Shown piece by piece: positions 13,356-51,091 of a stretch of DNA of 64,000 nt; the first letter of the stretch is position 1, and every line of letters starts with the position of its first letter. The notes below the pieces were generated by a model. It was given only the letters and a program-made list of their open reading frames with translations. It had not been told where the DNA came from and searched no databases. Position numbers and translations under genes: made by a program. The DNA is from Hyphomicrobiales bacterium. Its GTDB lineage: Bacteria; Pseudomonadota; Alphaproteobacteria; Rhizobiales; Rhizobiaceae. The stretch spans positions 147,405 to 211,404 of the forward strand of contig UICE01000005.1 of the NCBI GenBank assembly GCA_900471815.1, written 5' to 3'.

Positions 13356-13364
13356 GCAGCATCA

Positions 13365-14195
13365 ATGACAGTACCCCTATCCGAGGTGGGCACCCGTGCA
13401 GACGCCGTCGAGTTGCAAGGCATTACCATCGCTTTTCCGGTTGCCCATGAAAAGACATATGAGGCCGTTGGCGAAACAAATTTGAGTGTTCGTGATCGTG
13501 AGTTCGTTGCAATTGTTGGACCAACGGGCTGCGGAAAGTCCACCCTTTTAAATGCGACCGCTGGTTTGCTCAAACCAGCACGGGGCCAGATCAAAATCTT
13601 CGGCAAGACACATACCGGGATCAATGGCCATGCCGGATATCTCTTTCAGCAAGATTCGCTCATGCCGTGGAAGACATCGCTTGATAATGTTGCGATAGGG
13701 CTGGAAGTAGCCGGAACTCCGCGTCGTGAAGCGCTTGAGCGCGCTCGCACATGGCTGGGGAAAGTCGGACTTTCCGCCTTCTGCGACCGTTATCCGCACA
13801 TGCTTTCCGGCGGTCAGCGCAAACGTGTGGGATTGGCACAGGTCCTTATCCGCGACCCAAAGATCATATTAATGGACGAGCCTTTTGGGCCGTTGGATGC
13901 ACAGACCCGCCTTATTATGGGTGATCTGCTGCTTGATTTGTGGACAGCAGATCGCAAGGCAGTCATGTTTGTTACGCACGATCTTGATGAGGCAATCGGA
14001 CTTGCTGACCGGGTGGTCATTATGTCTGCTGGACCGTCGTCGCGCATTATTGGCGATTACACAATTCCACTAACCAGACCACGCAATATGGCTGACATCA
14101 AATCCGAGCCGCAATTCCATGAAGTGCACCGGGAAATCTGGAATGCGTTAAAGGAAGAAGTGCTCAAAGGTTATCGGCAGGCGGAAAAAGCATGA
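13365..14195 (+). CDS. ABC transporter ATPase (SsuB/TauB type)
   Basis: A 276-residue ATPase. Walker A GPTGCGKST lies near residue 50, the Q loop reads YLFQQDSLMPWKT (the W after the MP is typical of the SsuB/TauB group), signature LSGGQRKRVGLAQ and Walker B IILMDEPFGPLD follow, then the switch histidine in VTHDLDEA. An N-terminal extension of about 15 residues precedes the first strand. It starts nine bases after the binding-protein gene and its stop overlaps the permease start. Confidence 0.92.
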   Translation: MTVPLSEVGTRADAVELQGITIAFPVAHEKTYEAVGETNLSVRDREFVAIVGPTGCGKSTLLNATAGLLKPARGQIKIFGKTHTGINGHAGYLFQQDSLMPWKTSLDNVAIGLEVAGTPRREALERARTWLGKVGLSAFCDRYPHMLSGGQRKRVGLAQVLIRDPKIILMDEPFGPLDAQTRLIMGDLLLDLWTADRKAVMFVTHDLDEAIGLADRVVIMSAGPSSRIIGDYTIPLTRPRNMADIKSEPQFHEVHREIWNALKEEVLKGYRQAEKA

Positions 14196-14980
14196 TGAAT
14201 CGGGGACTTTTACTTCTCCTGCAAATTTTAGTGGCTGTCGTCGTTCTGGTAGCCTGGCACGTTGCCTCAACCACAACCCTTATCGGTGATCCTAAAACAA
14301 TCAGTTTTTTCTTCGCCGAGCCATTGGCCGTTGGCAACCGCATTATCGACTGGTTTGCCGATGGTTCGATTTGGTATCATCTCGGCATAACACTCACTGA
14401 GGCCGCACTTGCCTTCATCATCGGTTCGCTCGGGGGCGTGATTGTCGGGTTCTGGTTTGCGCGCAAACCACTCCTTGCTGCCGTTTTCGATCCTTATGTG
14501 AAAGCAGCCAATGCTTTGCCGCGCGTTGTTCTTGCACCAATATTTGCATTGTGGCTCGGGCTTGGCATCTGGTCGAAAGTGGCCTTGGGCGTTACTCTGG
14601 TTTTTTTCATTGTGTTCTTCAACGTCTATCAAGGTGTCAAGGAAGTAAGCCCTGCTGTGCTATCCAATGCGCGCATGCTTGGCATGAACGGAAGACAGTT
14701 GCTGCGCCATGTCTATATGCCGTCCGCGTTGTCCTGGATGTTCTCATCTTTGCATACGTCGGTAGGTTTTGCGGTAGTGGGAGCAGTGGTCGGTGAATAT
14801 CTGGGCTCAGCAGCGGGCCTGGGATATCTTATTCACGAGGCTGAAAGCGTCTTCGATGTCACCGGCGTTTTTGCAGGAATGTTTGTTTTGACTTTTTTCG
14901 TTATTCTTGTCGACTGGCTGGTGACACTTGTTGAAAACCGTCTGCTTGTCTGGAGGCCAAAGAGCGCTGCTTCCTTCTGA
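14192..14980 (+). CDS. ABC transporter permease (SsuC/TauC type)
   Basis: A 262-residue permease with about six hydrophobic segments. The BPD_transp_1 loop that meets the ATPase is ARMLGMNGRQLLRHVYMPSALSWMF, seen at about 165-190 (key residues G, R, Y, P). ANALPRVVLAPIFALWLGLG is the strong family stretch. It overlaps the ATPase by four bases and is directly abutted by the stop of the convergent PAS-LuxR gene at 14981, with no spacer, so no terminator fits between them. Confidence 0.92.
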   Translation: MMNRGLLLLLQILVAVVVLVAWHVASTTTLIGDPKTISFFFAEPLAVGNRIIDWFADGSIWYHLGITLTEAALAFIIGSLGGVIVGFWFARKPLLAAVFDPYVKAANALPRVVLAPIFALWLGLGIWSKVALGVTLVFFIVFFNVYQGVKEVSPAVLSNARMLGMNGRQLLRHVYMPSALSWMFSSLHTSVGFAVVGAVVGEYLGSAAGLGYLIHEAESVFDVTGVFAGMFVLTFFVILVDWLVTLVENRLLVWRPKSAASF

Positions 14981-38423: not shown

Positions 38424-40520
38424 ATGGCAGGCAGCATCCAACTTTTGGATAATCGTTGGGATGATCAAAAAGCAGCTGGTCTCGATGAGCCGGGCAAGTT
38501 GCTCTATCGTTCCAACCTGCTTGGTGCCGATAAGCGCATAACCAATTATGGTGGCGGCAATACTTCCGCAAAGGTAACGCAGACGGACCCGCTTACCGGC
38601 CAGCCTGTGGAAGTATTGTGGGTCAAGGGTTCCGGTGGCGATGTCGGAACCATAAAGCTTGATGGCTTTGCCACTCTTTACATGGAAAAGCTCAACTCCT
38701 TGAAGTCGATATATAAAGGGATTGAGGATGAAGATCGCATGGTGGGATTCCTGCCCCATTGCACCTTCAATCTGAACAGCCGTGCCGCCTCGATCGACAC
38801 CCCCCTCCATGGCTTTGTACCTTTCAGGCACGTCGATCACATGCACCCCGATGCAATTATCGCCATCGCTGCGTCGAAAAACTCCCGTGAACTGACAAGT
38901 CAAATTTTCGGTGACGATATCGGGTGGTTGCCTTGGCGCCGCCCCGGGTTTCAACTTGGCCTTGACCTTGGTGCCTATGTTGCAGCCCATCCAAACTCCA
39001 AGGGTGTCGTGCTGGAAAGTCACGGGCTTTTCACCTGGGCAGATGATGCCAAGGATTGCTATGAATTGACGCTGGAAATCATCAACAAGGCAATCAGTTG
39101 GTTCGACCAACAGACATCTGGCAAGGATGTCTTCGGAGGTGCGGCAACGAAAAACCTGAGCGCATCAGAACGCCGTGCCATCGCAGCAAAGCTGATGCCT
39201 GAAATTCGCGGGAAAATCGGTATTGCCGAACGCAAGCTTGGTCATTTTGATGATCAGCCTGCCGTGTTGGAATTTGTCAATTCGCACGATCTGCAACCAC
39301 TGGCCGCGCTAGGCACAAGTTGCCCCGATCATTTCCTGCGCACAAAGATCCGGCCGCTTGTGCTCGATTTTGACCCGGCACAACCCGATGCGGATGCCAT
39401 AGTCGCCACCCTGGATAGTGCGCTGGAAGCATATCGAGCCGACTATGCCCGATACTATAATGACTGCAAGCATGGCAACTCACCTGCGATGCGTGATCCA
39501 AATCCGGTCATTTTCCTCATTCCCGGTGTTGGCATGCTTTCATTTGCCAAAGACAAGGCCACCGCGCGTATCGCCGGAGAGTTTTATGTTAACGCGATCA
39601 ATGTGATGCGCGGCGCATCATCTGTGTCGGAATATCAGGGGCTGCCTGAACAGGAAGCCTTTGACATTGAATATTGGCTGCTTGAGGAAGCCAAACTTCA
39701 ACGTATGCCGAAGCCGAAATCATTGGCTGGCCGTGTCGCTTTTGTCACCGGCGGGGCCGGTGGTATCGGGCGAGCAACCGCTGAGCGGTTGCTCGGGGAG
39801 GGCGCTTGCGTTGTGCTGGCTGATATAGATGCTGAAGCCTTAAAAGCGACCAGTGAGGACCTCGCCAACCGTTACACAGCTGATGCTGTGCGCAGTGTGC
39901 AGCTGAACGTTACCGATGAAGCTGGCGTCATTGCCGGTTTTGCCGAAGCGTCAGTTGAATTTGGCGGAATAGACATTCTCGTCTCCAATGCTGGCATCGC
40001 GTCATCTGCGCCCATTGAAACCACTGAACTCTCCATGTGGACCCGCAATATCGACATTTTGGCAACGGGCTATTTTCTCGTGTCACGCGAAGCTTTCCGT
40101 CTGTTCCGCCGGCAAAAGATCGGCGGCAATGTTGTGTTTGTCGCTTCCAAGAATGGTCTTGCCGCATCGCCGAATGCCAGCGCCTATTGTGCAGCCAAAG
40201 CTGCCGAGATTCATCTTGCACGTTGCCTGGCGCTGGAGGGAGCGGATGCCGGAATTCGTGTCAATACCGTTAATCCTGACGCAGTTCTGCGAGGTTCAAA
40301 AATCTGGAACGGGGAATGGCGCGAGCAACGCGCAGCTTCGTCGAATTTGCAGGTTGATGAACTGGAGGAGCATTATCGCAAACGCTCAATGTTGAAGCTG
40401 AACGTGTTCCCGGAGGATATTGCCGAAGCTATCTACTTCCTGGCTTCCGACGCGTCGGCCAAATCGACAGGCAACATCATCAATGTCGACGCGGGTAACG
40501 CGCAAAGCTTTACACGTTAG
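38424..40520 (+). CDS. rhaD: Bifunctional rhamnulose-1-phosphate aldolase / L-lactaldehyde dehydrogenase
   Basis: A 698-residue fusion. The first part (about 1-430) is a class II aldolase/adducin domain that splits L-rhamnulose-1-phosphate into dihydroxyacetone phosphate and L-lactaldehyde; HVDHMHPDAI holds the zinc histidines and LESHGLFTWADD the later one. The second part (about 445-698) is a short-chain dehydrogenase with VTGGAGGIGRATAERL for NAD binding, NAGIASS, and YCAAKAA holding the catalytic Tyr and Lys; it should oxidise lactaldehyde to lactate. I start at ATG 38424 with TGGGAGG just before it. Together with rhaI it forms the divergent catabolic operon. Confidence 0.95.
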   Translation: MAGSIQLLDNRWDDQKAAGLDEPGKLLYRSNLLGADKRITNYGGGNTSAKVTQTDPLTGQPVEVLWVKGSGGDVGTIKLDGFATLYMEKLNSLKSIYKGIEDEDRMVGFLPHCTFNLNSRAASIDTPLHGFVPFRHVDHMHPDAIIAIAASKNSRELTSQIFGDDIGWLPWRRPGFQLGLDLGAYVAAHPNSKGVVLESHGLFTWADDAKDCYELTLEIINKAISWFDQQTSGKDVFGGAATKNLSASERRAIAAKLMPEIRGKIGIAERKLGHFDDQPAVLEFVNSHDLQPLAALGTSCPDHFLRTKIRPLVLDFDPAQPDADAIVATLDSALEAYRADYARYYNDCKHGNSPAMRDPNPVIFLIPGVGMLSFAKDKATARIAGEFYVNAINVMRGASSVSEYQGLPEQEAFDIEYWLLEEAKLQRMPKPKSLAGRVAFVTGGAGGIGRATAERLLGEGACVVLADIDAEALKATSEDLANRYTADAVRSVQLNVTDEAGVIAGFAEASVEFGGIDILVSNAGIASSAPIETTELSMWTRNIDILATGYFLVSREAFRLFRRQKIGGNVVFVASKNGLAASPNASAYCAAKAAEIHLARCLALEGADAGIRVNTVNPDAVLRGSKIWNGEWREQRAASSNLQVDELEEHYRKRSMLKLNVFPEDIAEAIYFLASDASAKSTGNIINVDAGNAQSFTR

Positions 40521-40538
40521 CTGTCCGGGGAGAATATT

Positions 40539-41831
40539 ATGGCTGAACTGCAGATTTCAGGCGATCTGATCGCGAGTGAAAACGACAAAGTACGAACTGC
40601 CCAAAAGAGCGACTATGATGCGCTGGGCGCACGTCTTGACCGGCACGGCGTCGACATCGAAACGATTACGAACAAAGTGGCGGCGTTTTTCGTTGCCGTA
40701 CCTTCCTGGGGAGTCGGCACCGGCGGCACGCGCTTTGCGCGCTTTCCAGGACATGGCGAACCACAGGGTATTTTCGATAAGCTTGATGATTGCGCGGTGA
40801 TACAGCAGTTGACCCGGGCTACGCCAAATGTGTCGCTGCATATCCCGTGGGACAAAGCCGATCCAAAGCAATTGAAAGCCCACGCGGACGCGCTCGGTCT
40901 GGGTTTCGACGCAATGAACTCCAACACGTTCTCGGATGCCGCCGATCAGAAGCATTCCTATAAGTATGGTTCACTTAGCCACGTAGATCAGGCTACGCGC
41001 AGTCAAGCCATTGATCACAATATCGAATGTATCGACATTGGCGTTGCGATTGGCTCGAAAGCGCTTACGGTGTGGGTTGGCGACGGTTCCAATTTTCCAG
41101 GTCAAAGCAATTTTGCCAAATCATTTGAGCGGTATCTCGGTTCAATGGCGGAGATATACAAAGCTCTGCCCGATGACTGGCGCATCTTCTCCGAACACAA
41201 AATGTATGAGCCTGCCTTCTATTCAACGGTCGTGCAGGATTGGGGTACGAATTACCTCATTGCTCAAACTTTGGGGCCGAAAGCATTTTGTCTCGTCGAT
41301 CTCGGCCACCATGCCGCCAACACCAATATTGAGATGATTGTTTCCCGGCTTATCCAGTTCAAAAAGCTCGGTGGTTTCCATTTCAACGATTCCAAATATG
41401 GGGATGACGACCTCGATGCGGGATCAATCGATCCCTACCGGTTGTTCCTTGTCTTCAATGAACTTGTTGATGCCGAGGATCGTGGTGTGCCGGATTTCCG
41501 CCCCGCGCACATGATCGACCAATCGCACAATGTCACCGATCCTATCGAAAGCCTGATCTCAAGCGCCAATGAAATTCGCCGCGCTTATGCGCAGGCTTTG
41601 CTGGTGGATCGCAAAGCGCTCGGCGCCTTCCAGGACGAGAACGACGCGCTGATGGCTTCGGACTCTCTGAAGCGGGCTTACCGGACTGACGTTGAGCCCA
41701 TTCTTGCTGAAGCAAGACTGCGGGCGGGTGGTGCGATTGATCCTATCGCTACCTATCGCAAAAGCCAGTACCGGCTGAAAATCGGCAAGGAACGCCCTGC
41801 CAGCCTGGCCGGCGGTGGCGGCATCATCTAA
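40539..41831 (+). CDS. rhaI: L-rhamnose isomerase
   Basis: A 430-residue TIM-barrel sugar isomerase of the rhizobial/Pseudomonas RhaI type. Probable metal ligands are in ISFEHK-like FSEHKMYEP, in VDLGHHAANTN and in FHFNDSKYGDDDL, the last giving the D-x-D pair. It converts L-rhamnose to L-rhamnulose for RhaK. The conserved opening VPSWGVGTGGTRFARFPGHG lies at residues 52-71. It begins 18 bases after rhaD with GGGGAG as a ribosome site, and ends before a strong terminator. Confidence 0.95.
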   Translation: MAELQISGDLIASENDKVRTAQKSDYDALGARLDRHGVDIETITNKVAAFFVAVPSWGVGTGGTRFARFPGHGEPQGIFDKLDDCAVIQQLTRATPNVSLHIPWDKADPKQLKAHADALGLGFDAMNSNTFSDAADQKHSYKYGSLSHVDQATRSQAIDHNIECIDIGVAIGSKALTVWVGDGSNFPGQSNFAKSFERYLGSMAEIYKALPDDWRIFSEHKMYEPAFYSTVVQDWGTNYLIAQTLGPKAFCLVDLGHHAANTNIEMIVSRLIQFKKLGGFHFNDSKYGDDDLDAGSIDPYRLFLVFNELVDAEDRGVPDFRPAHMIDQSHNVTDPIESLISSANEIRRAYAQALLVDRKALGAFQDENDALMASDSLKRAYRTDVEPILAEARLRAGGAIDPIATYRKSQYRLKIGKERPASLAGGGGII

Positions 41832-41848
41832 TCCGTATCATCTATTAG

Positions 41849-41890
41849 AAAAAATAAGGGCAGCGCCTTAAAGCGCTGCCCTTATTTTTT
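41849..41890 (+). terminator. Intrinsic terminator after rhaI
   Basis: An 18-base perfect stem, AAAAAATAAGGGCAGCGC at 41849-41866 and its complement at 41873-41890, with a six-base loop CTTAAA. It ends in six T, so it terminates the rhaDI transcript and insulates the next operon. Confidence 0.95.
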
Positions 41891-41918: not shown

Positions 41919-41960
41919 TTATTCTATTATAAAGAATTCTAATCCATAATAATAGAATAA
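41919..41960. promoter_or_regulatory. Operator of the peptide-type transporter operon
   Basis: TTATTCTATTAT at 41919-41930 and its exact complement ATAATAGAATAA at 41949-41960 form a 12-base perfect dyad with an 18-base spacer, just before the binding-protein start. A 14-base version of the left arm (CTTATTCTATTATA, 41918-41931) recurs with two changes at 48001-48014 in the IclR/PLP-enzyme gap. Inferred IclR binding site. Confidence 0.65.
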
Positions 41961-41973
41961 TAGGGGAATGACC

Positions 41974-43503
41974 ATGAAACCATTAAAGCTAGCATTGCTT
42001 CTCGGTTCCGCATTGATTGCACTGAGCCCATCTGCTTTTGCCCAGACCAAAGGCGGCGTGATCAACGTCGCCACGATCGGCGAACCGCCAACGCTGGATG
42101 CAATGGCATCAACGGCGGATCTGGTCGGCATTGTTTCGCAGCACATCTTCGAAACGCTCTATACGTTTGACAAAAACTGGAACGCCACGCCATTGCTGGC
42201 GGCAAGCCTGCCCGAAGTATCGCCAGACGGCAAAGTCTACACAATTAAGCTGCGCACCGGAGTTAAGTTCCACGACGGAACAGACATGGATGCCACCGAT
42301 GTCGTAGCCTCGTTAAAGCGGTGGACCCAAATCGCGTCCCGCGGAAAACAGGTCGCCTCCTTGATCACGTCAATTGACGTTGTTGATCCGGCCACTGTCA
42401 GAATAACACTCAATGCGCCTCATGCGCCGCTTCTCTCGCTGCTGGCATTCAACAATGCAGCCGCGATCATCCTCCCGAGCGAAAAACAGCAAAGCCCGAT
42501 GACCGAACCTGTTGGTACCGGACCCTACAAGCTTAAAGAGCGCAAAGCTGATCAATATATCCAGCTGTCACGCTTTGATGATTACAAGTCGCCTGAAGGC
42601 GAAGAAACCGGCTATGGCGGCGCGCGTCATCAATATCTCGACGAAATTCGTTTCGTACCCGTTCCAGATGCCAATACGCGCGTCGAAGGTGCCGTCGCTG
42701 GCCAGTTCGATTATGTCGACAGTCTTCCGGTTGAAGCCTATGCCCGATTGAAAGATCAAAAAACGACTGAAGCCGTGCTGCTGAAACCTTTTGGCTGGCC
42801 AGTTTTTGTCATGAATACAAGCGCAGGCATCACCAGAAATCAGGATATCCGCCTGGCTATCCGTGACTCCCTGAGCATGGAAGACATGCTGGCCGCGGCC
42901 TTTGGAAGTACCGATTTCTATTCTCTGGATGCTTCACTTTACCCTGATGGCTACAGCTGGAAAACAGATGCAGGAACGGAAGGCGCCTATAATGTTGCTG
43001 ATCCGGAAAAAGCTGCAGAACTGATGAAAAAGGCCGGATATAACGGTGAACCGATCCGCATTCTTACCAGTCGTCAGTATGAGTTCCATTATAAAATGGC
43101 GCAAGTTGCCGCCGAATATCTGAAAGCTGCGGGCTTTACAGTGGATATGCAGGTTGTCGATTGGGCGACACTGACACAGCGGCGAGCTGACCCGAAGCTC
43201 TGGGATATTTACATCAGCCATAGTCCGTTCTTGCCAGAACCCGCGCTCATTGGTGCTATGTCAACAAGCGCACCAGGCAATTGGGATACGCCTGCGCGTA
43301 AAGTCGCAGTGGATGCATTCAATTCCGAAGTGGACCCGGCAAAACGTGTGGCTCTTTGGGCAGAGGTGCAGAAGGTGATCTATGCCGAAGTACCGATCAT
43401 CAAGATCGGTGATTTCAACGCGCTCTCAGCAAAATCACCGAAGCTGGAAGGCTTCACACCAGCGCCGTGGCCCTATTTCTGGAACGTCTCGCTCAAACAG
43501 TAG
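41974..43503 (+). CDS. Dipeptide-type (SBP_bac_5) ABC substrate-binding protein
   Basis: A 509-residue periplasmic protein of the DppA/OppA family. Signal peptide MKPLKLALLLGSALIALSPS with AFA just before the cleavage (about residue 24). The mature part reads QTKGGVINVATIGEPPTLDA and has FHDGTDMDATDVVASLKRW and EPVGTGPYKLKERK, the family hallmarks. I prefer ATG 41974 because AGGGGA lies seven bases before it; ATG 41968 is too close. First gene of a five-gene operon. Ligands of this family include peptides, opines, nickel and sugars, so the ligand must be judged from the enzymes. Confidence 0.93.
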   Translation: MKPLKLALLLGSALIALSPSAFAQTKGGVINVATIGEPPTLDAMASTADLVGIVSQHIFETLYTFDKNWNATPLLAASLPEVSPDGKVYTIKLRTGVKFHDGTDMDATDVVASLKRWTQIASRGKQVASLITSIDVVDPATVRITLNAPHAPLLSLLAFNNAAAIILPSEKQQSPMTEPVGTGPYKLKERKADQYIQLSRFDDYKSPEGEETGYGGARHQYLDEIRFVPVPDANTRVEGAVAGQFDYVDSLPVEAYARLKDQKTTEAVLLKPFGWPVFVMNTSAGITRNQDIRLAIRDSLSMEDMLAAAFGSTDFYSLDASLYPDGYSWKTDAGTEGAYNVADPEKAAELMKKAGYNGEPIRILTSRQYEFHYKMAQVAAEYLKAAGFTVDMQVVDWATLTQRRADPKLWDIYISHSPFLPEPALIGAMSTSAPGNWDTPARKVAVDAFNSEVDPAKRVALWAEVQKVIYAEVPIIKIGDFNALSAKSPKLEGFTPAPWPYFWNVSLKQ

Positions 43504-43521
43504 GACCTGTAAGACTTCAAT

Positions 43522-43550
43522 GGCAGCGGAACGAACGTCCTTCCGCTGCC
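43522..43550 (+). promoter_or_regulatory. Intercistronic hairpin after the dipeptide-type binding protein
   Basis: GGCAGCGGAA at 43522-43531 pairs perfectly with TTCCGCTGCC at 43541-43550, a 10-base stem with a nine-base loop between the binding-protein gene and the permease gene. No T run follows. Confidence 0.65.
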
Positions 43551-43584
43551 AAACCGGATTTTGTTCCTTCTGACAGGACGCCTG

Positions 43585-44526
43585 ATGCTTCGCTACATCA
43601 TCCAACGCTTTATCGGTATGATCATCGTCATGTTTCTGGTGGTGACGATTGTATTTGTCATCGTGCGTGTCACACCCGGCGATCCGGCGGCTGTCATGCT
43701 CGGGCCGGAGGCCACGGCCGCTGATATCGCTGCCTTGCGGCAACAGCTTGGGCTCGATCAATCGATCTTGTTGCAGTACTTCTACTTCATCGGCAATTTG
43801 CTGAAGGGAGATCTCGGTCAGTCGATTTTCCTTAATCAGCCAGTACTTGAAGCGCTTGTACAACGTGCAGAACCCACCTTCTTCCTGACCATATTCTCGC
43901 TACTGATCGCAAGTATCATTGCGATACCGATTGGAATTTACGCTGCCTATCGCCGTGGCTCGGTGTTTGATCAGGCTGCAACAGCCCTTGCCATGCTTGC
44001 GGCAAGCATCCCAAGCTTTTGGCTTGGCCTCATATTAATGCAGGTTTTTGCTGTGCGCTTCGGCCTGTTTCCTGTTTCCGGCTATGGGGGGCCCGGCACA
44101 TCGCTGCTCGAACGGCTTGAATATCTTGTGCTGCCGGCCTTTGCATTGGGCATCGTCTCGTCCGCACTGATCATGCGTTTTACACGAGCCTCCATGCTAG
44201 ACGTACTTGGCGATGATTATATCCGCACAGCGCGCGCCAAGGGCGTCGATGAGCGCCGGGTGGTTCTGAAGCATGCCTTCAAAAATGCATTGATCCCCAT
44301 CCTCACTGTCATTGGCTTGACCGCTGCCGTGCTGATTTCCGGCGCGGTTGTTACAGAGACGGTTTTTGGTCTTCCCGGCGTCGGCAGTCTGGTTGTATCG
44401 GCGGTTTTGCGCCGCGACTATCCCGTCATCCAGGGTGCGTTGCTTATTATCGCAGCACTCTACGTGCTCATTAATTTCGCTATCGACATGCTCTACCTCG
44501 TCGTTGATCCAAGGGTGCGTTACTGA
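43585..44526 (+). CDS. Dipeptide-type ABC permease DppB-like
   Basis: A 313-residue permease: MLRYIIQRFIGMIIVMFLVV is the standard DppB first helix, followed by the periplasmic segment RVTPGDPAAVMLGPEATAAD. The ATPase-docking loop is DDYIRTARAKGVDERRVVLK, and ETVFGLPGVGSL is the later family motif. I use ATG 43585 with AGGA before it. Its stop overlaps the next permease start. Confidence 0.93.
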   Translation: MLRYIIQRFIGMIIVMFLVVTIVFVIVRVTPGDPAAVMLGPEATAADIAALRQQLGLDQSILLQYFYFIGNLLKGDLGQSIFLNQPVLEALVQRAEPTFFLTIFSLLIASIIAIPIGIYAAYRRGSVFDQAATALAMLAASIPSFWLGLILMQVFAVRFGLFPVSGYGGPGTSLLERLEYLVLPAFALGIVSSALIMRFTRASMLDVLGDDYIRTARAKGVDERRVVLKHAFKNALIPILTVIGLTAAVLISGAVVTETVFGLPGVGSLVVSAVLRRDYPVIQGALLIIAALYVLINFAIDMLYLVVDPRVRY

Positions 44527-45395
44527 TGACCGATATCGTCTCAACAGCGCAGCAAAGCGAGCGCTCCAAATTCTTCCATGTGCTGATCAAGCGAAAGACC
44601 GTACTTTTTGGCCTGATTGTCCTTGCAGTTTTCGTAACGCTGGCAATCTTTGCGCCTTTGATAACGCCCTATGCGCCTAACAAGCTCTCAATCGTTAACC
44701 GGCTAAAACCACCCGACGCCAGATGGTTCTTTGGCACCGACGAGTTTGGGCGTGATGTCTTCTCCCGCACAATTTTTTCCGCACGGCTATCACTGCTCGT
44801 AGGCTTCGCAGTAGTTGTCCTTGCCTCAGTGATAGGCGTGACGTTGGGTATTCTGGCTGGCTTCTTCCAAAGGCTCGATGCGCCGATCACCCGGCTTATC
44901 GACGCCATGATGGCGTTTCCCGATATTCTGCTCGCCATTGCGCTTGTTGCCGCGCTCGGGCCATCACTGACAACCGTGATTGTGGCGCTGAGTATTGTTT
45001 ATGCACCACGATTGGCACGTGTTGTGCGGGCGTCGACACTTGTCATCCGTGAATTGCCCTATGTGGAAGCTGCAACATCGCTCGGTATCTCCAAATGGCA
45101 CATCATGACGCGGCATATATTGCGAAATCTTCTGTCTCCAATCCTCGTTCAGGGAACCTTCCTTTTTGCCAATGCGATGCTGGCGGAAGCGGGCTTGTCA
45201 TTCCTCGGTCTTGGCGTCAGCCCCGAAGTACCCACCTGGGGAACGATGATCGCGTCAGGACGCCAATATATCGGCACCGCAGACTGGATGACTTTGTTTC
45301 CCGGTATTGCGATCGTGCTTGCCGTTCTCTCCCTGCAAATGGTCGGCGATGGCTTTCGCGACCTGTTAGACCCCCGTCTCAGAAAGGATCTGTGA
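44526..45395 (+). CDS. Dipeptide-type ABC permease DppC-like
   Basis: A 289-residue permease with a short cytosolic start, a first helix at about 22-45 and the DppC marker FGTDEFGRDVFSRTIFSARL. The docking loop is LPYVEAATSLGISKWHIMTR, and AEAGLSFLGLGVSPEVPTWG is the strong late motif. Partner of the DppB-like permease; the amidohydrolase starts two bases after its stop. Confidence 0.95.
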   Translation: MTDIVSTAQQSERSKFFHVLIKRKTVLFGLIVLAVFVTLAIFAPLITPYAPNKLSIVNRLKPPDARWFFGTDEFGRDVFSRTIFSARLSLLVGFAVVVLASVIGVTLGILAGFFQRLDAPITRLIDAMMAFPDILLAIALVAALGPSLTTVIVALSIVYAPRLARVVRASTLVIRELPYVEAATSLGISKWHIMTRHILRNLLSPILVQGTFLFANAMLAEAGLSFLGLGVSPEVPTWGTMIASGRQYIGTADWMTLFPGIAIVLAVLSLQMVGDGFRDLLDPRLRKDL

Positions 45396-45397
45396 TC

Positions 45398-46627
45398 ATG
45401 CCTGCCACTTCCGCAACCGCTGCTTCATCTCCCAGGGAAGGGCGCTTGCTTCTGACCAACGTAAATCCGGTAGCATTCGGCCCGAATACCCCCGCAACGA
45501 AAATCGATATCTTGATCGACGCTGATGGAAATATTGCGCAGTTTGGTTCTTCGCTGAACGTTACCGGCGACGTGCAACGGGTCGACGCCAAAGGATCGTG
45601 GATTTCTCCAGGCTGGGTCGATCTGCATGCGCATATATGGCATGGCGGCACCGATATCTCCGTTCGGCCGCAAGTATGCGGCGTTGAACGTGGCGTTACG
45701 ACGATTGTGGATGCAGGCTCAGCAGGCGAAGCCAACTTTCATGGCTTCCGCGAATATATCATCGATCCGGCAAAGGAACGGATCAAGGCATTTCTCAATC
45801 TGGGCTCAATAGGCCTCGTAGCCTGTAATCGCGTCAGCGAGCTTAGCGATATACGCTCCATTGATATTGATCGGACCGTGGCGTGCGTCAATGAAAACCG
45901 CGATCACATCGTGGGTCTGAAAGTGCGCGCAAGCCATGTCATCACCGGGTCATGGGGCGTTACTCCGGTAAAACTTGGCAAGAAAATCGCCAAGATCCTT
46001 AAAATTCCCATGATGGTTCATGTCGGCGAGCCTCCAGCTCTATATGAGGAGGTTCTGGAGATCTTGGGGCCAGGCGATATCATCACCCATTGCTTCAACG
46101 GCAAGGTTGGCAGCAGCATTATTGAAGACGATGATTTGTTTGAGTTGGCTGAACGTTGCGCAGGCGAGGGCATTCGTCTCGATATCGGCCATGGCGGTGC
46201 CTCATTCTCGTTCCGCGTCGCGGAAGTTGCCATTCAGCGCGGACTTTTGCCTTTTTCCATATCAACCGACATTCACTTGCGCAGCCTGAACTTTTCGGTA
46301 TGGGACCTTGGCACAACCATGTCCAAATTGCTGAGTGTGGGCATGCCTTTTGATAAGGTGGTCGAGGCGGTCACGCTCTCGCCGGCCTCTGCCATAGGTC
46401 TGCCGACGGACAATCTCTTGTCTGTTGGCAAACGCGCAGATTTTACGATCTTTGATCTTGCCGATTCAGACCTCAAGGTCATCGACTCCATGGGCTATGA
46501 GGCCAACCTCAGCAAATTATTCGAACCACGTATGGTTGTTCTGGGCACCGAGACGATTGCGGCCAGCCGTTATCAGCCAGTCGTGCCGGAGACCTCCGGC
46601 GCCATTGCGCCCTATTCGTACCGTTAG
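45398..46627 (+). CDS. Amidohydrolase-superfamily enzyme, COG3964 (Atu3266/EF0837) type
   Basis: A 409-residue metal-dependent hydrolase. The full metal set is visible: His77 and His79 in DLHAH, bridging Lys175 in GLKVRAS, His208 in VHVGEPP, His231 in THCFNG and Asp291 in STDIHL, a two-metal subtype. This spacing and the words GWVDLHAHIW and HCFNG fit the COG3964 group whose Agrobacterium member Atu3266 hydrolyses acetylated hydroxy acids in vitro; the natural substrate of the group is not settled. Start at ATG 45398; the long frame from 45095 lies in the permease gene. Genes of this group often lie beside SelA/DgaE-like PLP enzymes, as here. Confidence 0.88.
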   Translation: MPATSATAASSPREGRLLLTNVNPVAFGPNTPATKIDILIDADGNIAQFGSSLNVTGDVQRVDAKGSWISPGWVDLHAHIWHGGTDISVRPQVCGVERGVTTIVDAGSAGEANFHGFREYIIDPAKERIKAFLNLGSIGLVACNRVSELSDIRSIDIDRTVACVNENRDHIVGLKVRASHVITGSWGVTPVKLGKKIAKILKIPMMVHVGEPPALYEEVLEILGPGDIITHCFNGKVGSSIIEDDDLFELAERCAGEGIRLDIGHGGASFSFRVAEVAIQRGLLPFSISTDIHLRSLNFSVWDLGTTMSKLLSVGMPFDKVVEAVTLSPASAIGLPTDNLLSVGKRADFTIFDLADSDLKVIDSMGYEANLSKLFEPRMVVLGTETIAASRYQPVVPETSGAIAPYSYR

Positions 46628-46636
46628 GATTTCGTC

Positions 46637-47134
46637 TTGAGTCACAGTACCCCTACAACACTACAGAGCGAAACCTTGCCCTATGAGCGGTTAAGGGCGC
46701 TTGGAATTACGTTGCCCCCGGCGCCAAACCCGATAGCAAATTTTGTCACCCACATTCAGGAAGGCAATCTGCTCTATCTGTCAGGGCAAGGACCGCGTGA
46801 GGCCGACGGTTTCATGCATACGGGAAAAGTCGGCGGCGATGTCGGCGTTGAAGATGCATACCAACATGCACGACTGACGGCCATCAATCTCCTGGCCGTC
46901 ATGCAATCAGCACTCGGGGATCTGAACAGGGTCAAGCGCGTCGTGAAACTGCTTGGAATGGTCAATGCCGTTTCGGACTTTGCCGACCATCCCCTTGTTA
47001 TCAATGGCTGCTCGGACTTGCTGATCAGCGTTTTTGGCGAAGCAGGCAATCACGCCCGCTCTGCGGTCGGCTTCGGGTCACTTCCAGGCAATATCACAGT
47101 CGAGATCGAGGCGATCATCGCCTTGAAGGATTAG
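46637..47134 (+). CDS. RidA/YjgF-family protein
   Basis: A 165-residue protein of the RidA superfamily, which hydrolyses reactive enamine/imine products of PLP enzymes to keto acid and ammonia. Recognisable segments: YLSGQGPREADGFMHTGKVG, DAYQHARLTAINLLAVMQSA and GDLNRVKRVVKLLGMVNAVS. Members usually have about 125-155 residues, and this one carries an N-terminal extension (about 20 residues) as in the RidA subgroup annotated YoaB/YjgH-like. No catalytic-type Arg105 region (CIEAIAC) is seen; the C terminus reads TVEIEAIIALKD, so imine hydrolase activity is uncertain. TTG start at 46637 with AGGA seven bases before; no ATG fits. Confidence 0.82.
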   Translation: MSHSTPTTLQSETLPYERLRALGITLPPAPNPIANFVTHIQEGNLLYLSGQGPREADGFMHTGKVGGDVGVEDAYQHARLTAINLLAVMQSALGDLNRVKRVVKLLGMVNAVSDFADHPLVINGCSDLLISVFGEAGNHARSAVGFGSLPGNITVEIEAIIALKD

Positions 47135-47137
47135 GAA

Positions 47138-47962
47138 TCAGGAATGACTGCGCCAACCCATAATGGTTTCGATACGGTCCGCAGAGGCTTTGACCTCACT
47201 GGCGTAGCGGTCCGGGTTGTCCGCAATTTTCTGTTCTGCAAGGACTATGGAAATAGTCGCGATGCATACACCTTTATCATCGCAGATCGGCGAAGCAACG
47301 CAGGCCACTGCATAGTCGGATTCACCCGCCTGAATGGAAATGCGAGCCTTCAAAGCTTCTCCGGCTGCCGCCGACAGGGCCGAGGGATCAATGACTGCAC
47401 GTCCGGTGGGAGAAGATTTTGCACAGTGCTCGAAAAGATCCAGCCGTTCTTTTTCCGGAAGGTGCCCAACAAGCAGACGGCCCGAAGCGGTCCAATTCAG
47501 CGGAACACGCGTGCCGACGCGGGAAGTCACCTGGAAATGACCAGGACCATCTGCCATGGCCAGCACCATCATATGGTCGCCATCGCGTCCGCATACCTGA
47601 ACAGTCTCGCCGGATATGCGGCTCAGATTATGCATTTCATGATTTGCCACATTCAGGAAATCCAAAGACCGCGCATAGGCAAGGCCATAATGATAAAGGC
47701 GAGCCCCCAGCCAGACAGTGCTGTCGCTGTTGCGCGAAAGCATATTCTTTTCAACCAAATCGTCGATTATCACATAGACGGTCGAAAGCGGAGCGCCGAT
47801 AGCTTTGGCGATAGCATAAATGCCTGCTGGAGAACCCGTCTCGTAAAGATAGTCAAGCACCTGCAACGCGCGGTCCATACCGCTGACGCGCGAGCGTTTT
47901 CCGGTCGACTCTGCCTTCTCGTAACCGCCGGATGTGTCCATGTCTGATATTTTGGCGGTCAC
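47138..47962 (-). CDS. IclR-family transcriptional regulator
   Basis: A 274-residue regulator with the IclR winged helix (about 28-90: [40 protein letters not shown]) and the C-terminal effector domain (about 105-270: [40 protein letters not shown]). GTG start at 47962 with AGGAG at the proper distance; the ATG at 47941 is the alternative. It converges on the RidA gene with a three-base gap and diverges from the PLP enzyme gene. An AT motif shared by the two transporter-side promoters points to it as the local regulator. Confidence 0.93.
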
Positions 47963-48000
47963 GTTCGCAGCTCCTGCTGGTTGGTTTGGGTTACACCACT

Positions 48001-48014
48001 CTTATTACATTATA
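48001..48014. promoter_or_regulatory. Second copy of the IclR-type motif
   Basis: CTTATTACATTATA matches 12 of 14 bases with CTTATTCTATTATA at 41918-41931. It lies between the divergent IclR gene (start 47962) and the PLP enzyme (start 48056), where it could act on both. Confidence 0.55.
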
Positions 48015-48055
48015 GCGGCATATATGCCAAGAAAATGGAATGCAAGGAGAATACT

Positions 48056-49249
48056 ATGACTGACATTCGCGCATCGCGAGGGTTGCGACCGGTAATCAAT
48101 GTTTCGGGAACAATGACGGCATTGGGCGCATCGATTGTTGTGCCTGAAGCGGTCGCAGCGATGACCGCCATACTTCCACAGTTTGTGGAAATCAACGATC
48201 TGCACAAGCTTGCCAGCCCCGTTATTGCCCGTCTGACCGGCGGAGAAGCGGGCTTTGTAACGGCCTCATGCTCTGCAGGAATTACGCTTGCGGTAGCGGC
48301 AGCCATGACGGGCAATGATCTGGCCGCCATTGAACGGTTGCCGGATGCCACTGGCCTCAAGGACGAAGTGATTATTCAAACCGGTCACGTTGTCAGCTAT
48401 GGTGCGCCTGTCGATCAGGGCATTCGTCTGGCAGGTGCCAAGGCCGTCCTGATTGGTCAGGCAACCTCCTGCTACCCCTATCATCTGGATGGTGCGATCA
48501 ACGAGCGCACCGCTGCTGCCGTTTTTGTCGTGTCCCACCATACGGTCCAGTATGGTCTGATTGCCCTGAAGCAATTTGCCGAAGTTTGTCATGCTCGCGG
48601 CGTTCCAGTTATCGTTGATGCGGCCTCGGAATATGATTTCAAGATATTCCTTGAACAGGGCGCAGACATTGCACTCTATTCGTCGCACAAGTTCCTTGGC
48701 GGTCCAACAGGCGGTATTGTTGCCGGAAAGAAGCAGCTTGTACGCGATGCCTTCCTGCAAAATCGCGGCATTGGACGCGGCATGAAGATCGGCAAGGAGA
48801 GTATTCTTGGTACGATTGCAGCACTGGAAGCATGGGAGAAGCGTGACCATATCGGTATTCGTGAGCGGGAAACGGGCTATCTCCACCTATGGAAGCAGAT
48901 ACTGACCGGCAAACCGGGCGTCACTGCCGAGATCGAAGCGGATCCGACACACAATCCTCTTGATCGGCTGCGGGTAACCATCAATCCACAGGAAGCCCAT
49001 ATAACTGCCTGGGATTTTGCTGATGCACTGGCAGCAGGATCACGCCCGGTCATCGTGCGTGATCATGAGGCTGAGCATGGCTATTTTTATCTGGACCCAT
49101 GCAATCTGCATCCTGGTGAAGAGACAATCGTCGCAAGCCGTCTTGAGGAGGAGTTGGCCAAGGCCCGCGCTTCCAACCAGATTATCTCCTCGCCTTATGA
49201 GGAGCGATATCAGGCGCGCATTGATGCCTTGATGCGCTGGCCCGATTGA
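48056..49249 (+). CDS. SelA/DgaE-like PLP-dependent enzyme
   Basis: A 397-residue fold-type I PLP enzyme. Lys212 in [13 protein letters not shown] is the Schiff-base lysine and Asp188 in [10 protein letters not shown] should bind the pyridine nitrogen. [20 protein letters not shown] is the typical opening of the group that includes D-glucosaminate-6-phosphate ammonia-lyase (DgaE) and SelA-like proteins; it is not selenocysteine synthase, which needs a longer N-terminal domain and tRNA. A lyase that eliminates ammonia or water is likely. AAGGAG at 48044-48049 fixes ATG 48056. It is 24 bases ahead of the transporter ATPase gene. Confidence 0.85.
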
Positions 49250-49273
49250 TCGCACATCTGAAAGGACCAATCC

Positions 49274-51091
49274 ATGGATAAATCCGTTTCCCCTGTCTTG
49301 TCAGTTTCGAACCTGACAACGTCATTTCTGGCTGACGGCAAATGGCGGCCCGTGGTGCGCAATGTTTCATTCGATGTCGCCCCCGGCGAAACAGTTGCCA
49401 TTGTTGGTGAATCCGGTTCCGGTAAAAGCGTCACCTCCTTGTCGATTATGCGGCTTCTGCAGAAAGACAAAAGTCGCATCGAAGGCAGCATATTGCTTGA
49501 TGGTAAGGACATACTTAGCTTGCCTGAAAGCCAGATGCGCTCGGTCCGGGGCAACGATGTCGCAATGATCTTCCAGGAGCCGATGACCAGTCTCAACCCG
49601 CTGTTCACCATCGGCCAGCAGATCAGCGAGGCCCTGCTTTGCCATCACGATATGTCTCGGGCCGATGCACGGGCCGAGACGATCCGACTGTTGGAAAAAG
49701 TCCGTATCCCGGCAGCAAAATCGCGGTTCAACGAGTATCCGCATCGTTTTTCAGGTGGCATGCGTCAACGCGTGATGATTGCCATGGCGCTTGCCAGCAA
49801 ACCGAAACTGCTCATTGCCGACGAACCGACCACGGCGCTCGACGTTACGATTCAAGGCCAGATTCTGGACCTGATAAAGCTTCTGCAGGATGAGGAGGGC
49901 GCTTCGGTCCTCTTCATCACCCATGATATGGGTGTTGTTGCCGAAATTGCGGACCGCACGGTGGTTATGTACAATGGCGAAGCGGTTGAAACGGGTCCCA
50001 CTGAAGACATTTTTGCCCGGCCCCGGCACCCCTATACCCGCTCATTGCTATCGGCGGTGCCCATCCTTGGCTCTATGCAGGGCCGCGAGCGCCCGCTGCG
50101 GTTTCCAGTTGTAGACCGAAATACCGGCACGTCAGATACGCCTGTCGAGGCCGCGGACACGGTCCAGACGGAAAAGCCACCATTACTTGAAGTCCGCAAT
50201 CTCACGACGCGCTTCAACATTCATTCCGGCATGTTCGGCCAGTTGGAGGGCAGGGTTCATGCAGTGGAAAACCTGTCCTTCAGCCTGCAACCTGGTGAAA
50301 CACTGTCCTTGGTCGGCGAATCTGGCTGCGGAAAGTCAACAACGGGTCGTTCCATCATGCGGCTTGTACAGCCGCAATCGGGCGAGGTTCTTCTTAACGG
50401 CAAAGATGTCTTGATGATGGAACCAAAACAGCTTCGCGATATGCGACGCACCATGCAGATGATCTTTCAGGACCCGTTCGCTAGTCTCAATCCGCGTATG
50501 ACCGTCGGCGCAGCGATCGCTGAACCCTATCTCGAGCATAAACTTGGAACGCGCGCACAGGCCCGCGACAGGGTTGCGGATCTTTTGGAGCGGGTTGGCC
50601 TGAATGCCGATATGGCGGCACGCTACCCGCATGAATTCTCCGGCGGTCAGCGCCAGCGCGTGTGCATTGCGCGCGCCCTGGCTCTCGATCCCCGGATTAT
50701 TGTGGCAGATGAATCCGTTTCTGCACTGGATGTTTCCATCAAAGCGCAGGTGATTAATCTCCTGCTCGACCTGCAATCCAGTCTCAATCTTGCTTATCTT
50801 TTCATCTCACACGATATAGCTGTCGTCGAGCGCGTCAGCCATCGCATTGCTGTTATGTACCTTGGTGAGATCGTTGAAATCGGACCACGTTCGGCGATCT
50901 TCGAAAATCCCCAGCACCCCTACACGAAGAAGCTGATATCGGCTGTACCCGTGCCAGATCCTTCCCGGCGCGGTATAAAGCGGCCGGTTTCCAATGACGA
51001 AATTAAAAGCCCTGTACGCACACCCGATTTCGTCACGCCGGTGAGACAATATAAGGAAGTTTCCACCGGGCACATTGTTCAAGTTGCCTAG
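49274..51091 (+). CDS. Dipeptide-type ABC ATPase, DppD-DppF fusion
   Basis: A 605-residue protein made of two ABC ATPases in tandem (GsiA/YejF-like). First domain, about 5-265: GESGSGKS, FSGGMRQRVMIAMAL, LLIADEPTTALD. Second, about 300-560: GESGCGKS, FSGGQRQRVCIARAL, IIVADESVSALD. Each ends with the oligopeptide-type HPYTRSLLSAVP or HPYTKKLISAVP element. Both sites look intact. It powers the DppB/DppC-like permeases 4.7 kb upstream on the same strand; the transport genes are therefore split into two operons around the IclR gene. Confidence 0.95.
   Translation: MDKSVSPVLSVSNLTTSFLADGKWRPVVRNVSFDVAPGETVAIVGESGSGKSVTSLSIMRLLQKDKSRIEGSILLDGKDILSLPESQMRSVRGNDVAMIFQEPMTSLNPLFTIGQQISEALLCHHDMSRADARAETIRLLEKVRIPAAKSRFNEYPHRFSGGMRQRVMIAMALASKPKLLIADEPTTALDVTIQGQILDLIKLLQDEEGASVLFITHDMGVVAEIADRTVVMYNGEAVETGPTEDIFARPRHPYTRSLLSAVPILGSMQGRERPLRFPVVDRNTGTSDTPVEAADTVQTEKPPLLEVRNLTTRFNIHSGMFGQLEGRVHAVENLSFSLQPGETLSLVGESGCGKSTTGRSIMRLVQPQSGEVLLNGKDVLMMEPKQLRDMRRTMQMIFQDPFASLNPRMTVGAAIAEPYLEHKLGTRAQARDRVADLLERVGLNADMAARYPHEFSGGQRQRVCIARALALDPRIIVADESVSALDVSIKAQVINLLLDLQSSLNLAYLFISHDIAVVERVSHRIAVMYLGEIVEIGPRSAIFENPQHPYTKKLISAVPVPDPSRRGIKRPVSNDEIKSPVRTPDFVTPVRQYKEVSTGHIVQVA

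What the first reader, a model, noticed from the sequence alone, without database searches (positions are those of the whole stretch)
41919..51091. Possible undescribed catabolic regulon: peptide-type importer, COG3964 amidohydrolase, SelA/DgaE-like PLP enzyme, RidA and IclR
Seen directly: a binding protein, two permeases, a two-metal amidohydrolase (H77, H79, K175, H208, H231, D291 present) and a RidA-family gene in one operon; an IclR gene; a PLP enzyme with Lys212 and a fused ATPase in a second operon. Known: RidA proteins clear reactive imines from PLP lyases, and DgaE-type enzymes eliminate ammonia from sugar-derived amino acids. Inference: import of an acylated amino acid or amino-sugar acid, deacylation by the amidohydrolase, elimination by the PLP enzyme and imine clean-up by the RidA protein. 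No aldolase or kinase is in the set, so the product is presumably a common keto acid. The substrate is not known.
Basis: partly seen in the sequence, partly recalled or inferred. Interest (0 to 1): 0.72.

Follow-up and report, generated by a model that had tools for sequence, protein, structure and literature searches.

The report
Oxidised amino-sugar uptake and breakdown cassette
Soil and root-associated bacteria carry a conserved set of genes that very probably imports an oxidised, acetylated amino sugar, strips off the acetate and then the ammonia, and feeds the rest into central metabolism, much as a marine chitin pathway does but with a differently built set of proteins.

Summary
In detail: 41968-51091 holds a peptide-type ABC importer, a COG3964 amidohydrolase, a Rid protein, an IclR regulator and a DgaE-like PLP lyase. 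It is a conserved cassette: in the 80 nearest PLP loci kept, Rid is found in 76, importer parts in 73-76, the amidohydrolase in 69; flanking rhamnose rhaI in 6. A 22-bp palindrome learned from importer promoters lies before the PLP gene in 37 of 46 loci where IclR diverges from it and in 0 of 29 others. Where the amidohydrolase-IclR pair lies 30-37 kb away, both genes carry the site. So it is one regulon. The PLP enzyme keeps DgaE's catalytic residues but has Cys for one phosphate Arg, so its substrate is probably unphosphorylated. Partner genes point to N-acetyl-hexosaminate: a beta-N-acetylhexosaminidase operon with the operator, N-acetylhexosamine-oxidase homologues with lactonases, GntP gluconate permeases. 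It works like the marine Ong pathway but is not a member. The substrate is inferred, not shown.

The parts
41858..41881 (+). terminator-like hairpin followed by a T run; separates the rhamnose genes from the cassette
   Evidence: perfect inverted repeat listed
41939..41960 (.). predicted IclR operator at the importer/amidohydrolase promoter
   Evidence: 23.3 bits, best site in the 64-kb window; this promoter was itself in the training set; 1 mismatch in the genome pattern search
41968..43503 (+). periplasmic substrate-binding protein, family SBP_bac_5
   Evidence: PF00496 242 bits; found in 73 of 80 related loci
43588..44526 (+). DppB-type permease
   Evidence: 73 of 80
44526..45395 (+). DppC-type permease
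   Evidence: 76 of 80
45398..46627 (+). COG3964 amidohydrolase, predicted N-acetyl-hexosaminate deacetylase
   Evidence: NF006689 433 bits; 73% identical to PDB 2ogj; metal-ligand motifs; 69 of 80 loci
46637..47134 (+). Rid-family protein, predicted imine/enamine hydrolase partner of the PLP lyase
   Evidence: PF14588 76 bits; PDB 3d01 E 8e-39; Arg141 in HARSAVG; 76 of 80 loci
47138..47962 (-). IclR-family regulator
   Evidence: PF01614, PF09339; 64 of 80 loci
48002..48023 (.). predicted IclR operator between iclR and the PLP gene
   Evidence: 16.3 bits, second-best place in the window; PLP upstream sequences were not used in training
48056..49249 (+). DgaE-like PLP enzyme, predicted 2-amino-2-deoxy-hexonate ammonia-lyase
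   Evidence: DgaE 7lc0 is the best solved relative, E 8e-73; H161, H162, K212, R304, R335 kept, Arg346 of DgaE replaced by C349
49274..51091 (+). fused DppD-DppF-type importer ATPase
   Evidence: two ABC_tran stretches, oligo_HPY; an ATPase of this type in 74 of 80 loci

Best explanation
It is an IclR-controlled catabolic cassette for an N-acetylated 2-amino-2-deoxy-hexonic acid (N-acetyl-D-glucosaminate and/or N-acetyl-D-galactosaminate, i.e. C1-oxidised GlcNAc/GalNAc). The SBP5/DppBC/DppDF importer brings it in; the COG3964 amidohydrolase removes acetate; the DgaE-like PLP enzyme removes ammonia from the free, unphosphorylated aminohexonate to give a 2-keto-3-deoxy-hexonate; the Rid protein hydrolyses an enamine/imine released by the PLP enzyme; a KdgK and Eda encoded elsewhere finish the route to pyruvate and glyceraldehyde-3-phosphate. 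IclR binds a palindrome at both promoters. Shown here by computation: gene content, conservation, shared operator, residue signature, partner genes. Inferred: every chemical step, the regulator-site contact and the substrate.
For: Cassette: (80 loci); order sample: all 9 other genomes with a close amidohydrolase also have a close PLP gene, within 8 kb in 8. Regulon. Unphosphorylated substrate: Cys349 in 119 locus rows (102 distinct sequences) with that column read, among them all 16 full-length rows found without a sequence pattern; Arg there in Salmonella 7lc0, in six correctly framed rows of an unnamed family (f92), in C. difficile and in Niallia, the last two beside a kinase and a KDGP aldolase. 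Amino-sugar acid: Thalassospira GNAT-GH3-importer-Rid-PLP-IclR run with the operator at its head; the GH3 scores 195.5 bits as beta-N-acetylhexosaminidase, cut-off 207; the same GNAT-GH3-importer operon in R. leguminosarum, R. etli and Ensifer also has the site; Chelatococcus cassette with a lactonase before it and after it an oxidase whose best PDB match is N-acetyl-D-hexosamine oxidase 7zzk, E 9e-81; Granulicella with a 7zzk homologue (E 4e-162), lactonase, COG3964 and RidA; Paraburkholderia and an unnamed relative with PLP-porin-GntP gluconate symporter and an operator; a Rhodospirillales MAG with aldose 1-epimerase and a lactonase. Chemistry precedent: Ong pathway with an essential RidA. 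Downstream.
Against: No activity was measured. Recalled, from no call: Atu3266 (PDB 2ogj; 97% identical to the amidohydrolase of an Agrobacterium cassette) preferred acetyl-(R)-mandelate esters and hydrolysed N-acetyl-D-serine poorly; I do not know whether an N-acetyl-hexosaminate was tried. R. aethiopicum HBR26 was negative on D-glucosaminic acid and D-serine, though another R. aethiopicum strain (L091) has importer, Rid and PLP; Hoeflea phototrophica was negative on both, cassette content unknown. S. meliloti is listed with D-glucosaminic acid among its substrates, while 9 of the 11 S. meliloti plasmid rows listed are only SelA-like (22-24%). Polar-amino-acid importers (SBP_bac_3) replace the peptide-type one in L039, L112 and L135, and the GntP models include the D-serine carrier DsdX, so a plain D-hydroxyamino acid is not excluded. 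Granulicella's two DgaE-like proteins lack the catalytic His pair. The oxidase was found in only 2 of 119 loci searched. L125, L126 and L157 have no operator site, nor have L039, L040, L043, L045 and L047 above 6 bits. Two of three phosphate-binding Arg remain.
Confidence: 0.6

Rival explanations
1. The cassette degrades N-acyl-D-amino acids with a 3-hydroxyl (N-acyl-D-serine, D-threonine or similar): deacylation, then dehydration/deamination to pyruvate or 2-ketobutyrate.
For: Polar-amino-acid importers in L039, L112, L135; the GntP permeases also match the D-serine carrier model, below its cut-off; the analogous OngC also accepts D-serine and D-threonine; no kinase or aldolase in the set.
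Against: Beta-N-acetylhexosaminidase, N-acetylhexosamine-oxidase homologues, lactonases and an aldose epimerase as partners are not expected for amino acids; two sugar-phosphate Arg of DgaE are kept; N-acetyl-D-serine was a very poor substrate of Atu3266 (recalled).
Confidence: 0.17
2. The amidohydrolase is an esterase for O-acetylated (R)-2-hydroxy acids, as its Agrobacterium orthologue was reported to be, and the PLP gene serves a separate substrate.
For: 2ogj is 97% identical to the cassette enzyme of Agrobacterium L090; the acetyl-(R)-mandelate activity is recalled, only the title of that paper was seen.
Against: Tight conservation with the PLP and Rid genes and a shared operator even when unlinked argue for one pathway; a deacetylated hydroxy acid has no amino group for a PLP lyase.
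Confidence: 0.08
3. Same pathway logic but another sugar-derived 2-amino acid: an N-acyl aminohexarate, an aminopentonate, or an N-acyl amino-sugar acid from peptidoglycan, lipid A or an opine.
For: Arg304 and Arg335 are kept and could hold a distal carboxylate; the binding protein's solved relatives include AgaA, an agropinic-acid protein as I recall; a beta-N-acetylhexosaminidase-type GH3 is a partner.
Against: The characterised relative of the partner oxidases strongly prefers GlcNAc and GalNAc, which points to plain N-acetyl-hexosaminates.
Confidence: 0.13

Closest known systems
Ong pathway for GlcNAc1A in marine Pseudoalteromonas (PMC9537276)
   Same: Import of an oxidised acetyl-amino sugar, deacetylation, PLP-dependent deamination, a RidA protein (essential there, role unknown), dedicated repressor; both deacetylases are metal-dependent barrel amidohydrolases.
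   Different: There: SSS symporter, D-aminoacylase-type OngB, fold-type III OngC, MurR/RpiR regulator, TonB receptors, KdgK in the cluster. Here: peptide-type ABC importer, COG3964 enzyme, DgaE/SelA-like PLP enzyme, IclR with a palindrome; kinase not in the cassette.
[quoted passage not shown]
   Same: Same PLP family; His pair, Lys and two of three phosphate Arg kept.
   Different: No PTS and no DgaF beside it; third Arg replaced by Cys; below the family cut-offs.
COG3964/DgaE/KDGP-aldolase clusters of Firmicutes (C. difficile plasmid L059, Niallia L156)
   Same: COG3964 relative next to a DgaE-family enzyme.
   Different: PTS (annotated in C. difficile), MupG-family protein, sugar kinase and aldolase there; the phosphate Arg present; no Rid or IclR among the genes annotated around the C. 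difficile cluster.
PDB 2ogj, cog3964 enzyme of Agrobacterium (Atu3266 by recall)
   Same: 97% identical to the amidohydrolase of an Agrobacterium cassette, 73% to the window's.
   Different: Its published activity (recalled) was an ester hydrolase; I recall no pathway assigned.
Predicted GlcNAc route of Natrarchaeobius (PMC12343721)
   Same: A DgaE homologue with IclR and a RutC-family protein in chitinase clusters, predicted only.
   Different: Deacetylation before oxidation, CE14 deacetylase, an unknown kinase assumed.

Membership tests
COG3964 amidohydrolase/deacetylase (NF006689) | score over curated cut-off | tested here: met
   433 bits, cut-off 371
COG3964 amidohydrolase/deacetylase (NF006689) | metal ligands H-x-H, Lys, two His, Asp | tested here: met
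   H77, H79, K175, H208, H231, D291 present; metal content not testable
EF_0837 family (TIGR03583) | score over curated cut-off | tested here: not met
   295 bits, cut-off 432
[quoted passage not shown]
   TIGR01437 312 of 385; NF047797 291 of 600
[quoted passage not shown]
   K212, H161, H162
[quoted passage not shown]
   R304 and R335 kept; the Arg346 column is C349; cluster from PMC9529869
[quoted passage not shown]
   needs an enzyme assay
Ong pathway (as a set of gene families) | D-aminoacylase-type OngB, fold III OngC, SSS OngIT, MurR/RpiR OngR | tested here: not met
   family scans of the cassette give other families; Ong families; no direct comparison with Ong sequences was made
Ong pathway (as chemistry) | GlcNAc1A to KDG via deacetylation and deamination | not testable with these tools
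   inferred from partner genes
Rid family | domain and conserved Arg | tested here: met
   PF14588 76 bits, Arg141; TIGR00004 40 of 106, so not over the cut-off of that subfamily
IclR regulators | HTH_IclR and IclR_C domains | tested here: met
IclR regulators | binds the palindrome found | not testable with these tools
   co-conservation only

The most novel reading that the evidence does not exclude
A widespread terrestrial, root-associated pathway for C1-oxidised N-acetyl-hexosamines, assembled separately from the marine Ong pathway out of a COG3964 deacetylase and a non-phosphorylating branch of the DgaE family with a Rid partner. It would give a physiological role to Atu3266 and to the orphan N-acetyl-hexosamine oxidases; in some lineages a beta-N-acetylhexosaminidase belongs to the same regulon and an oxidase and lactonase sit beside it, so that bacteria may oxidise GlcNAc/GalNAc themselves before using it.
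Probability: 0.5. Interest if true: 0.75.

Novelty: new variant of a known kind. Interest (0 to 1): 0.62.

Why it matters
Oxidised chitin and amino sugars are made by LPMOs and oxidases, but the only worked-out catabolic route for GlcNAc1A that my paper searches turned up is marine. A conserved cassette in Rhizobium, Agrobacterium, Phyllobacterium, Ensifer, Mesorhizobium and Devosia, with variants in Thalassospira and Paraburkholderia, could be the land counterpart. It gives two orphan enzymes a testable home: the cog3964 enzyme 2ogj/Atu3266, and the N-acetyl-hexosamine oxidase whose biological function its discoverers call unclear. It also separates a probably phosphate-free branch of the DgaE family by one residue, so annotations such as 'aminotransferase class V-fold PLP-dependent enzyme' could be made more precise.

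Tried and rejected
Considered and rejected: (a) the rhamnose genes and kbl-tdh as part of the system: RhaI recurs in 6, RhaD in 4, Kbl and Tdh in 3 of 80 loci. (b) Dihydroorotase for the amidohydrolase: TIGR00857 37 bits against a cut-off of 279; the 2ogj protein lacks the DHOase Arg. (c) SelA function for the PLP enzyme: the SelA domain model is over its cut-off (PF03841 38 bits, cut-off 23), but selA itself scores 49 of 268 and the DgaE models far more. (d) Rfam element at gathering threshold or tRNA in the window: none. (e) A kinase or aldolase in the cassette: none; a C. difficile kinase query found only a 23-bit match in the genome, the PfkB/NCBIfam route then gave a KdgK candidate. (f) Further regulon members in the own genome: the pattern, written after both sites were known, found the two cassette sites plus one 3-mismatch site; control 2. 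The only match to the Thalassospira GH3 in the genome is 40% identical, probably housekeeping NagZ.

Led nowhere: sampling for the oxidases in 398 Pseudomonadota and 199 order genomes gave 0 hits at strict thresholds; the tool warns that an empty answer without a positive control shows nothing. Plasmid searches with the two oxidases gave distant actinobacterial relatives, one Acaryochloris and Granulicella itself. The Azospirillum GH3 locus L195 has no operator, but also no GNAT or matching importer. In L049 the best motif place is not at the importer promoter. Loci without an operator are listed under evidence against. My first gene caller picked antisense frames in GC-rich loci and was replaced by a codon-scored one, which still errs in places. 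In one search four f92 rows gave no ORF (L171, L174, L179, L182) and three were misframed (L176, L177, L183): all seven are left out of the residue statement; 8t7j, a solved family member of unknown role, also has Arg there but Arg for the first His. In one search the fragment L024 could not be read at that column. In one search, 75 of 82 loci were usable; the cut-off of 5 bits was set after seeing the scores.

Papers: PMC9537276 passages and sections 13 and 16; PMC12017989 outline and abstract; PMC9529869 first of three parts; PMC12343721, PMC5278577, PMC4207669, PMC5237526, PMC3764936, PMC12524618, PMC9850908 passages; PMC9299179 passages and section 10. The Ornelas 2013 paper on the cog3964 enzyme is not held; its results are recalled. 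Paper searches; no listed title or abstract described this cassette, but most subscription journals are not in that library.
Full report
WHAT IS THERE. The region holds, in order, an SBP_bac_5 binding protein, DppB, DppC, a COG3964 amidohydrolase and a Rid protein on the plus strand; an IclR gene on the minus strand; then a DgaE-like PLP enzyme and a fused DppD-DppF-type ATPase on the plus strand.

IT IS A CONSERVED CASSETTE. Mapping the window's proteins on those 80 loci, at identity floors of 40-60%, found Rid in 76, DppC in 76, the ATPase in 74, the binding protein and DppB in 73 each, the amidohydrolase in 69 and IclR in 64; RhaI in 6, RhaD in 4, Kbl and Tdh in 3. These 80 are the nearest relatives, and some contigs are short. 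In a sample of 199 genomes of the order, the window's own included, 17 have a near full-length PLP homologue of 48% identity or more (one more, G097, has it only in pieces) and 10 an amidohydrolase of 49% or more; all 10 have both, within 8 kb in 9 and 30 kb apart in one. The other 7 have the PLP gene without a close amidohydrolase. Gene order varies among loci (fused or split ATPase, IclR divergent or downstream) while the set stays together.

IT IS ONE REGULON. A 22-bp motif was learned by expectation-maximisation from 25 of 49 thinned sequences upstream of the binding-protein gene only, the window's own among them. It reads aTATaACATAATtaTGGAACAa, roughly a palindrome. Its two best places in the 64-kb window are 41939-41960 and 48002-48023, the two promoters of the cassette. 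The PLP upstream sequences were not used in training: of 75 usable loci, a site of 5 bits or more lies upstream of the PLP gene in 37 of 46 where IclR diverges from it, in 0 of 15 where IclR is on the same strand and in 0 of 14 with no IclR nearby; 0 of 410 coding tiles reach 5 bits. In Rhizobium indicum (L054; PLP gene 37 kb away) and genome G023 (L033; 30 kb away) the amidohydrolase-iclR pair is separate from the importer-Rid-PLP operon, and in both stretches the best sites are before the amidohydrolase (22.8 and 20.7 bits) and before iclR (13.0 in both); these two stretches were not in the training set. In the window's whole genome a pattern built from both sites finds them and one other, against 2 for the control. 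That IclR itself binds the palindrome is inferred.

THE PLP ENZYME. [quoted passage not shown] The lysine, the two histidines (His163 of DgaE is the proton donor) and two of three Arg near which the phosphate was docked (PMC9529869) are kept. The third, Arg346, is Cys349 here. It is Cys in 119 locus rows, 102 distinct sequences, with the column readable. One search pattern contains LDPCNL and so favours Cys, but all 16 full-length loci taken, found without a pattern, have it too. It is Arg in 7lc0, in 8t7j, in six correctly framed rows of an unnamed family f92, in C. difficile and in Niallia, the last two beside a kinase and a KDGP aldolase. Hence an unphosphorylated substrate, by inference. 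Three rows (two of them the same gene) have Gln or Thr in place of the second His.

THE AMIDOHYDROLASE. PDB 2ogj (the Agrobacterium cog3964 enzyme; the name Atu3266 is recalled) is 97% identical to the enzyme of the Agrobacterium genomosp. 13 cassette and 73% to the window's, so an enzyme once studied as an orphan belongs to this cassette. From memory, it hydrolysed acetyl-(R)-mandelate well and N-acetyl-D-serine poorly; the (R)/D preference fits an N-acetyl-D-hexosaminate, the weak N-deacetylase activity is a point against.

WHAT THE PARTNERS SAY ABOUT THE SUBSTRATE. (1) Thalassospira marina has GNAT, GH3, another peptide-type importer, Rid, PLP and IclR in one run with the operator at its head. 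The GH3 scores 195.5 bits as beta-N-acetylhexosaminidase, just under the cut-off of 207. The same GNAT-GH3-importer operon is complete in R. leguminosarum L192, Ensifer L193 and R. etli L194, and runs off the end of R. aethiopicum L091. An operator-like site lies 5 to 15 bases before GNAT in these five loci; of 300 shuffles of each upstream stretch none reached the observed score in four loci and one did in L091. IclR-type operators may look alike, so another IclR could act in the rhizobial cases. (2) Chelatococcus asaccharovorans (L125) has a lactonase (PF10282) just before the binding protein and, 415 bases after the PLP gene, an FAD oxidase whose best PDB match is N-acetyl-D-hexosamine oxidase (275 bits). 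Granulicella tundricola has such an oxidase (543 bits), a lactonase, a COG3964 enzyme, RidA and two DgaE-like proteins together, though those two lack the catalytic His pair. Of 119 loci searched only these two have the oxidase. The characterised oxidase prefers GlcNAc and GalNAc and makes the C1 lactone; its role is stated to be unclear. (3) Paraburkholderia caribensis (L160) and an unnamed relative (L187) have PLP-porin-GntP with gluconate-symporter scores of 479 and 489 bits (cut-off 293) and an operator between iclR and PLP. (4) A Rhodospirillales MAG (L126) has aldose 1-epimerase after the amidohydrolase and a lactonase about 4 kb from the PLP gene on the other strand. (5) Polar-amino-acid importers replace the peptide-type one in L039, L112 and L135, and an M81 hydrolase with a sugar-type importer accompanies Rid-PLP in L045. 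An acetylated or free amino-sugar acid is the one class I can think of that fits all of these.

DOWNSTREAM. The genome has Eda (253 bits, cut-off 156) and a PfkB kinase whose only NCBIfam match at E 1e-30 is 2-dehydro-3-deoxygluconokinase (290 bits, cut-off 400).

COMPARISON WITH THE KNOWN. The proposed chemistry is that of the marine Ong pathway, where RidA is essential and its role unknown; the DgaE work suggests that proton transfer on the enzyme may be needed to avoid releasing a potentially cytotoxic intermediate, which is where a Rid protein would help. The parts differ: OngB is D-aminoacylase-type (though also a barrel amidohydrolase), OngC is fold-type III, the importer an SSS symporter and the regulator MurR/RpiR. 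It works like the Ong pathway but is not a member of it. A predicted archaeal route with a DgaE homologue, IclR and a RutC-family protein in chitinase clusters is a further hint that this trio belongs to amino-sugar use.

LIMITS. No activity, binding or growth was measured. Phenotype reports, seen as passages only, are mixed: R. aethiopicum HBR26 and Hoeflea phototrophica are negative on D-glucosaminic acid, Ensifer aridi strains use it and S. meliloti is listed with it; the passages say nothing of the N-acetyl form or of these genes.

Noticed in passing
L045 7805-9313; L049 about 12815-14293: An M81 (MlrC-type) metallohydrolase precedes Rid-PLP in L045, where no COG3964 gene was found; a 70% identical copy lies about 1 kb beyond the importer in L049. 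It may be an alternative deacylase.
   Followed up: partly
L039, L112, L135: SBP_bac_3 polar-amino-acid importer with Rid and PLP but no amidohydrolase found in the stretch; L112 has an operator-like palindrome at 5404 before that importer.
   Followed up: partly
L157 5998-7263 and 7827-9425: Granulicella carries two DgaE-like proteins lacking the catalytic His pair, in one run with RidA, COG3964, lactonase and an N-acetyl-hexosamine-oxidase homologue: perhaps a heteromer.
   Followed up: no
L059 2504-10912; L156 4823-10855: Firmicute clusters with MupG-family protein, COG3964, DgaE, KDGP aldolase and kinase (PTS annotated in L059) look like a phosphorylated version of the same route, perhaps for an oxidised disaccharide.
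   Followed up: no
L043 1-3943: A GMC oxidoreductase and what reads like a LacI-type regulator (not scanned) lie beside a COG3964 gene and a DgaE-like gene with another peptide-type importer.
   Followed up: no
window 38424-41831: rhaD-rhaI directly upstream; in Rhizobium indicum the unlinked amidohydrolase-iclR pair also sits beside rhaI (L054), a shared synteny without a shared function that I could see.
   Followed up: partly
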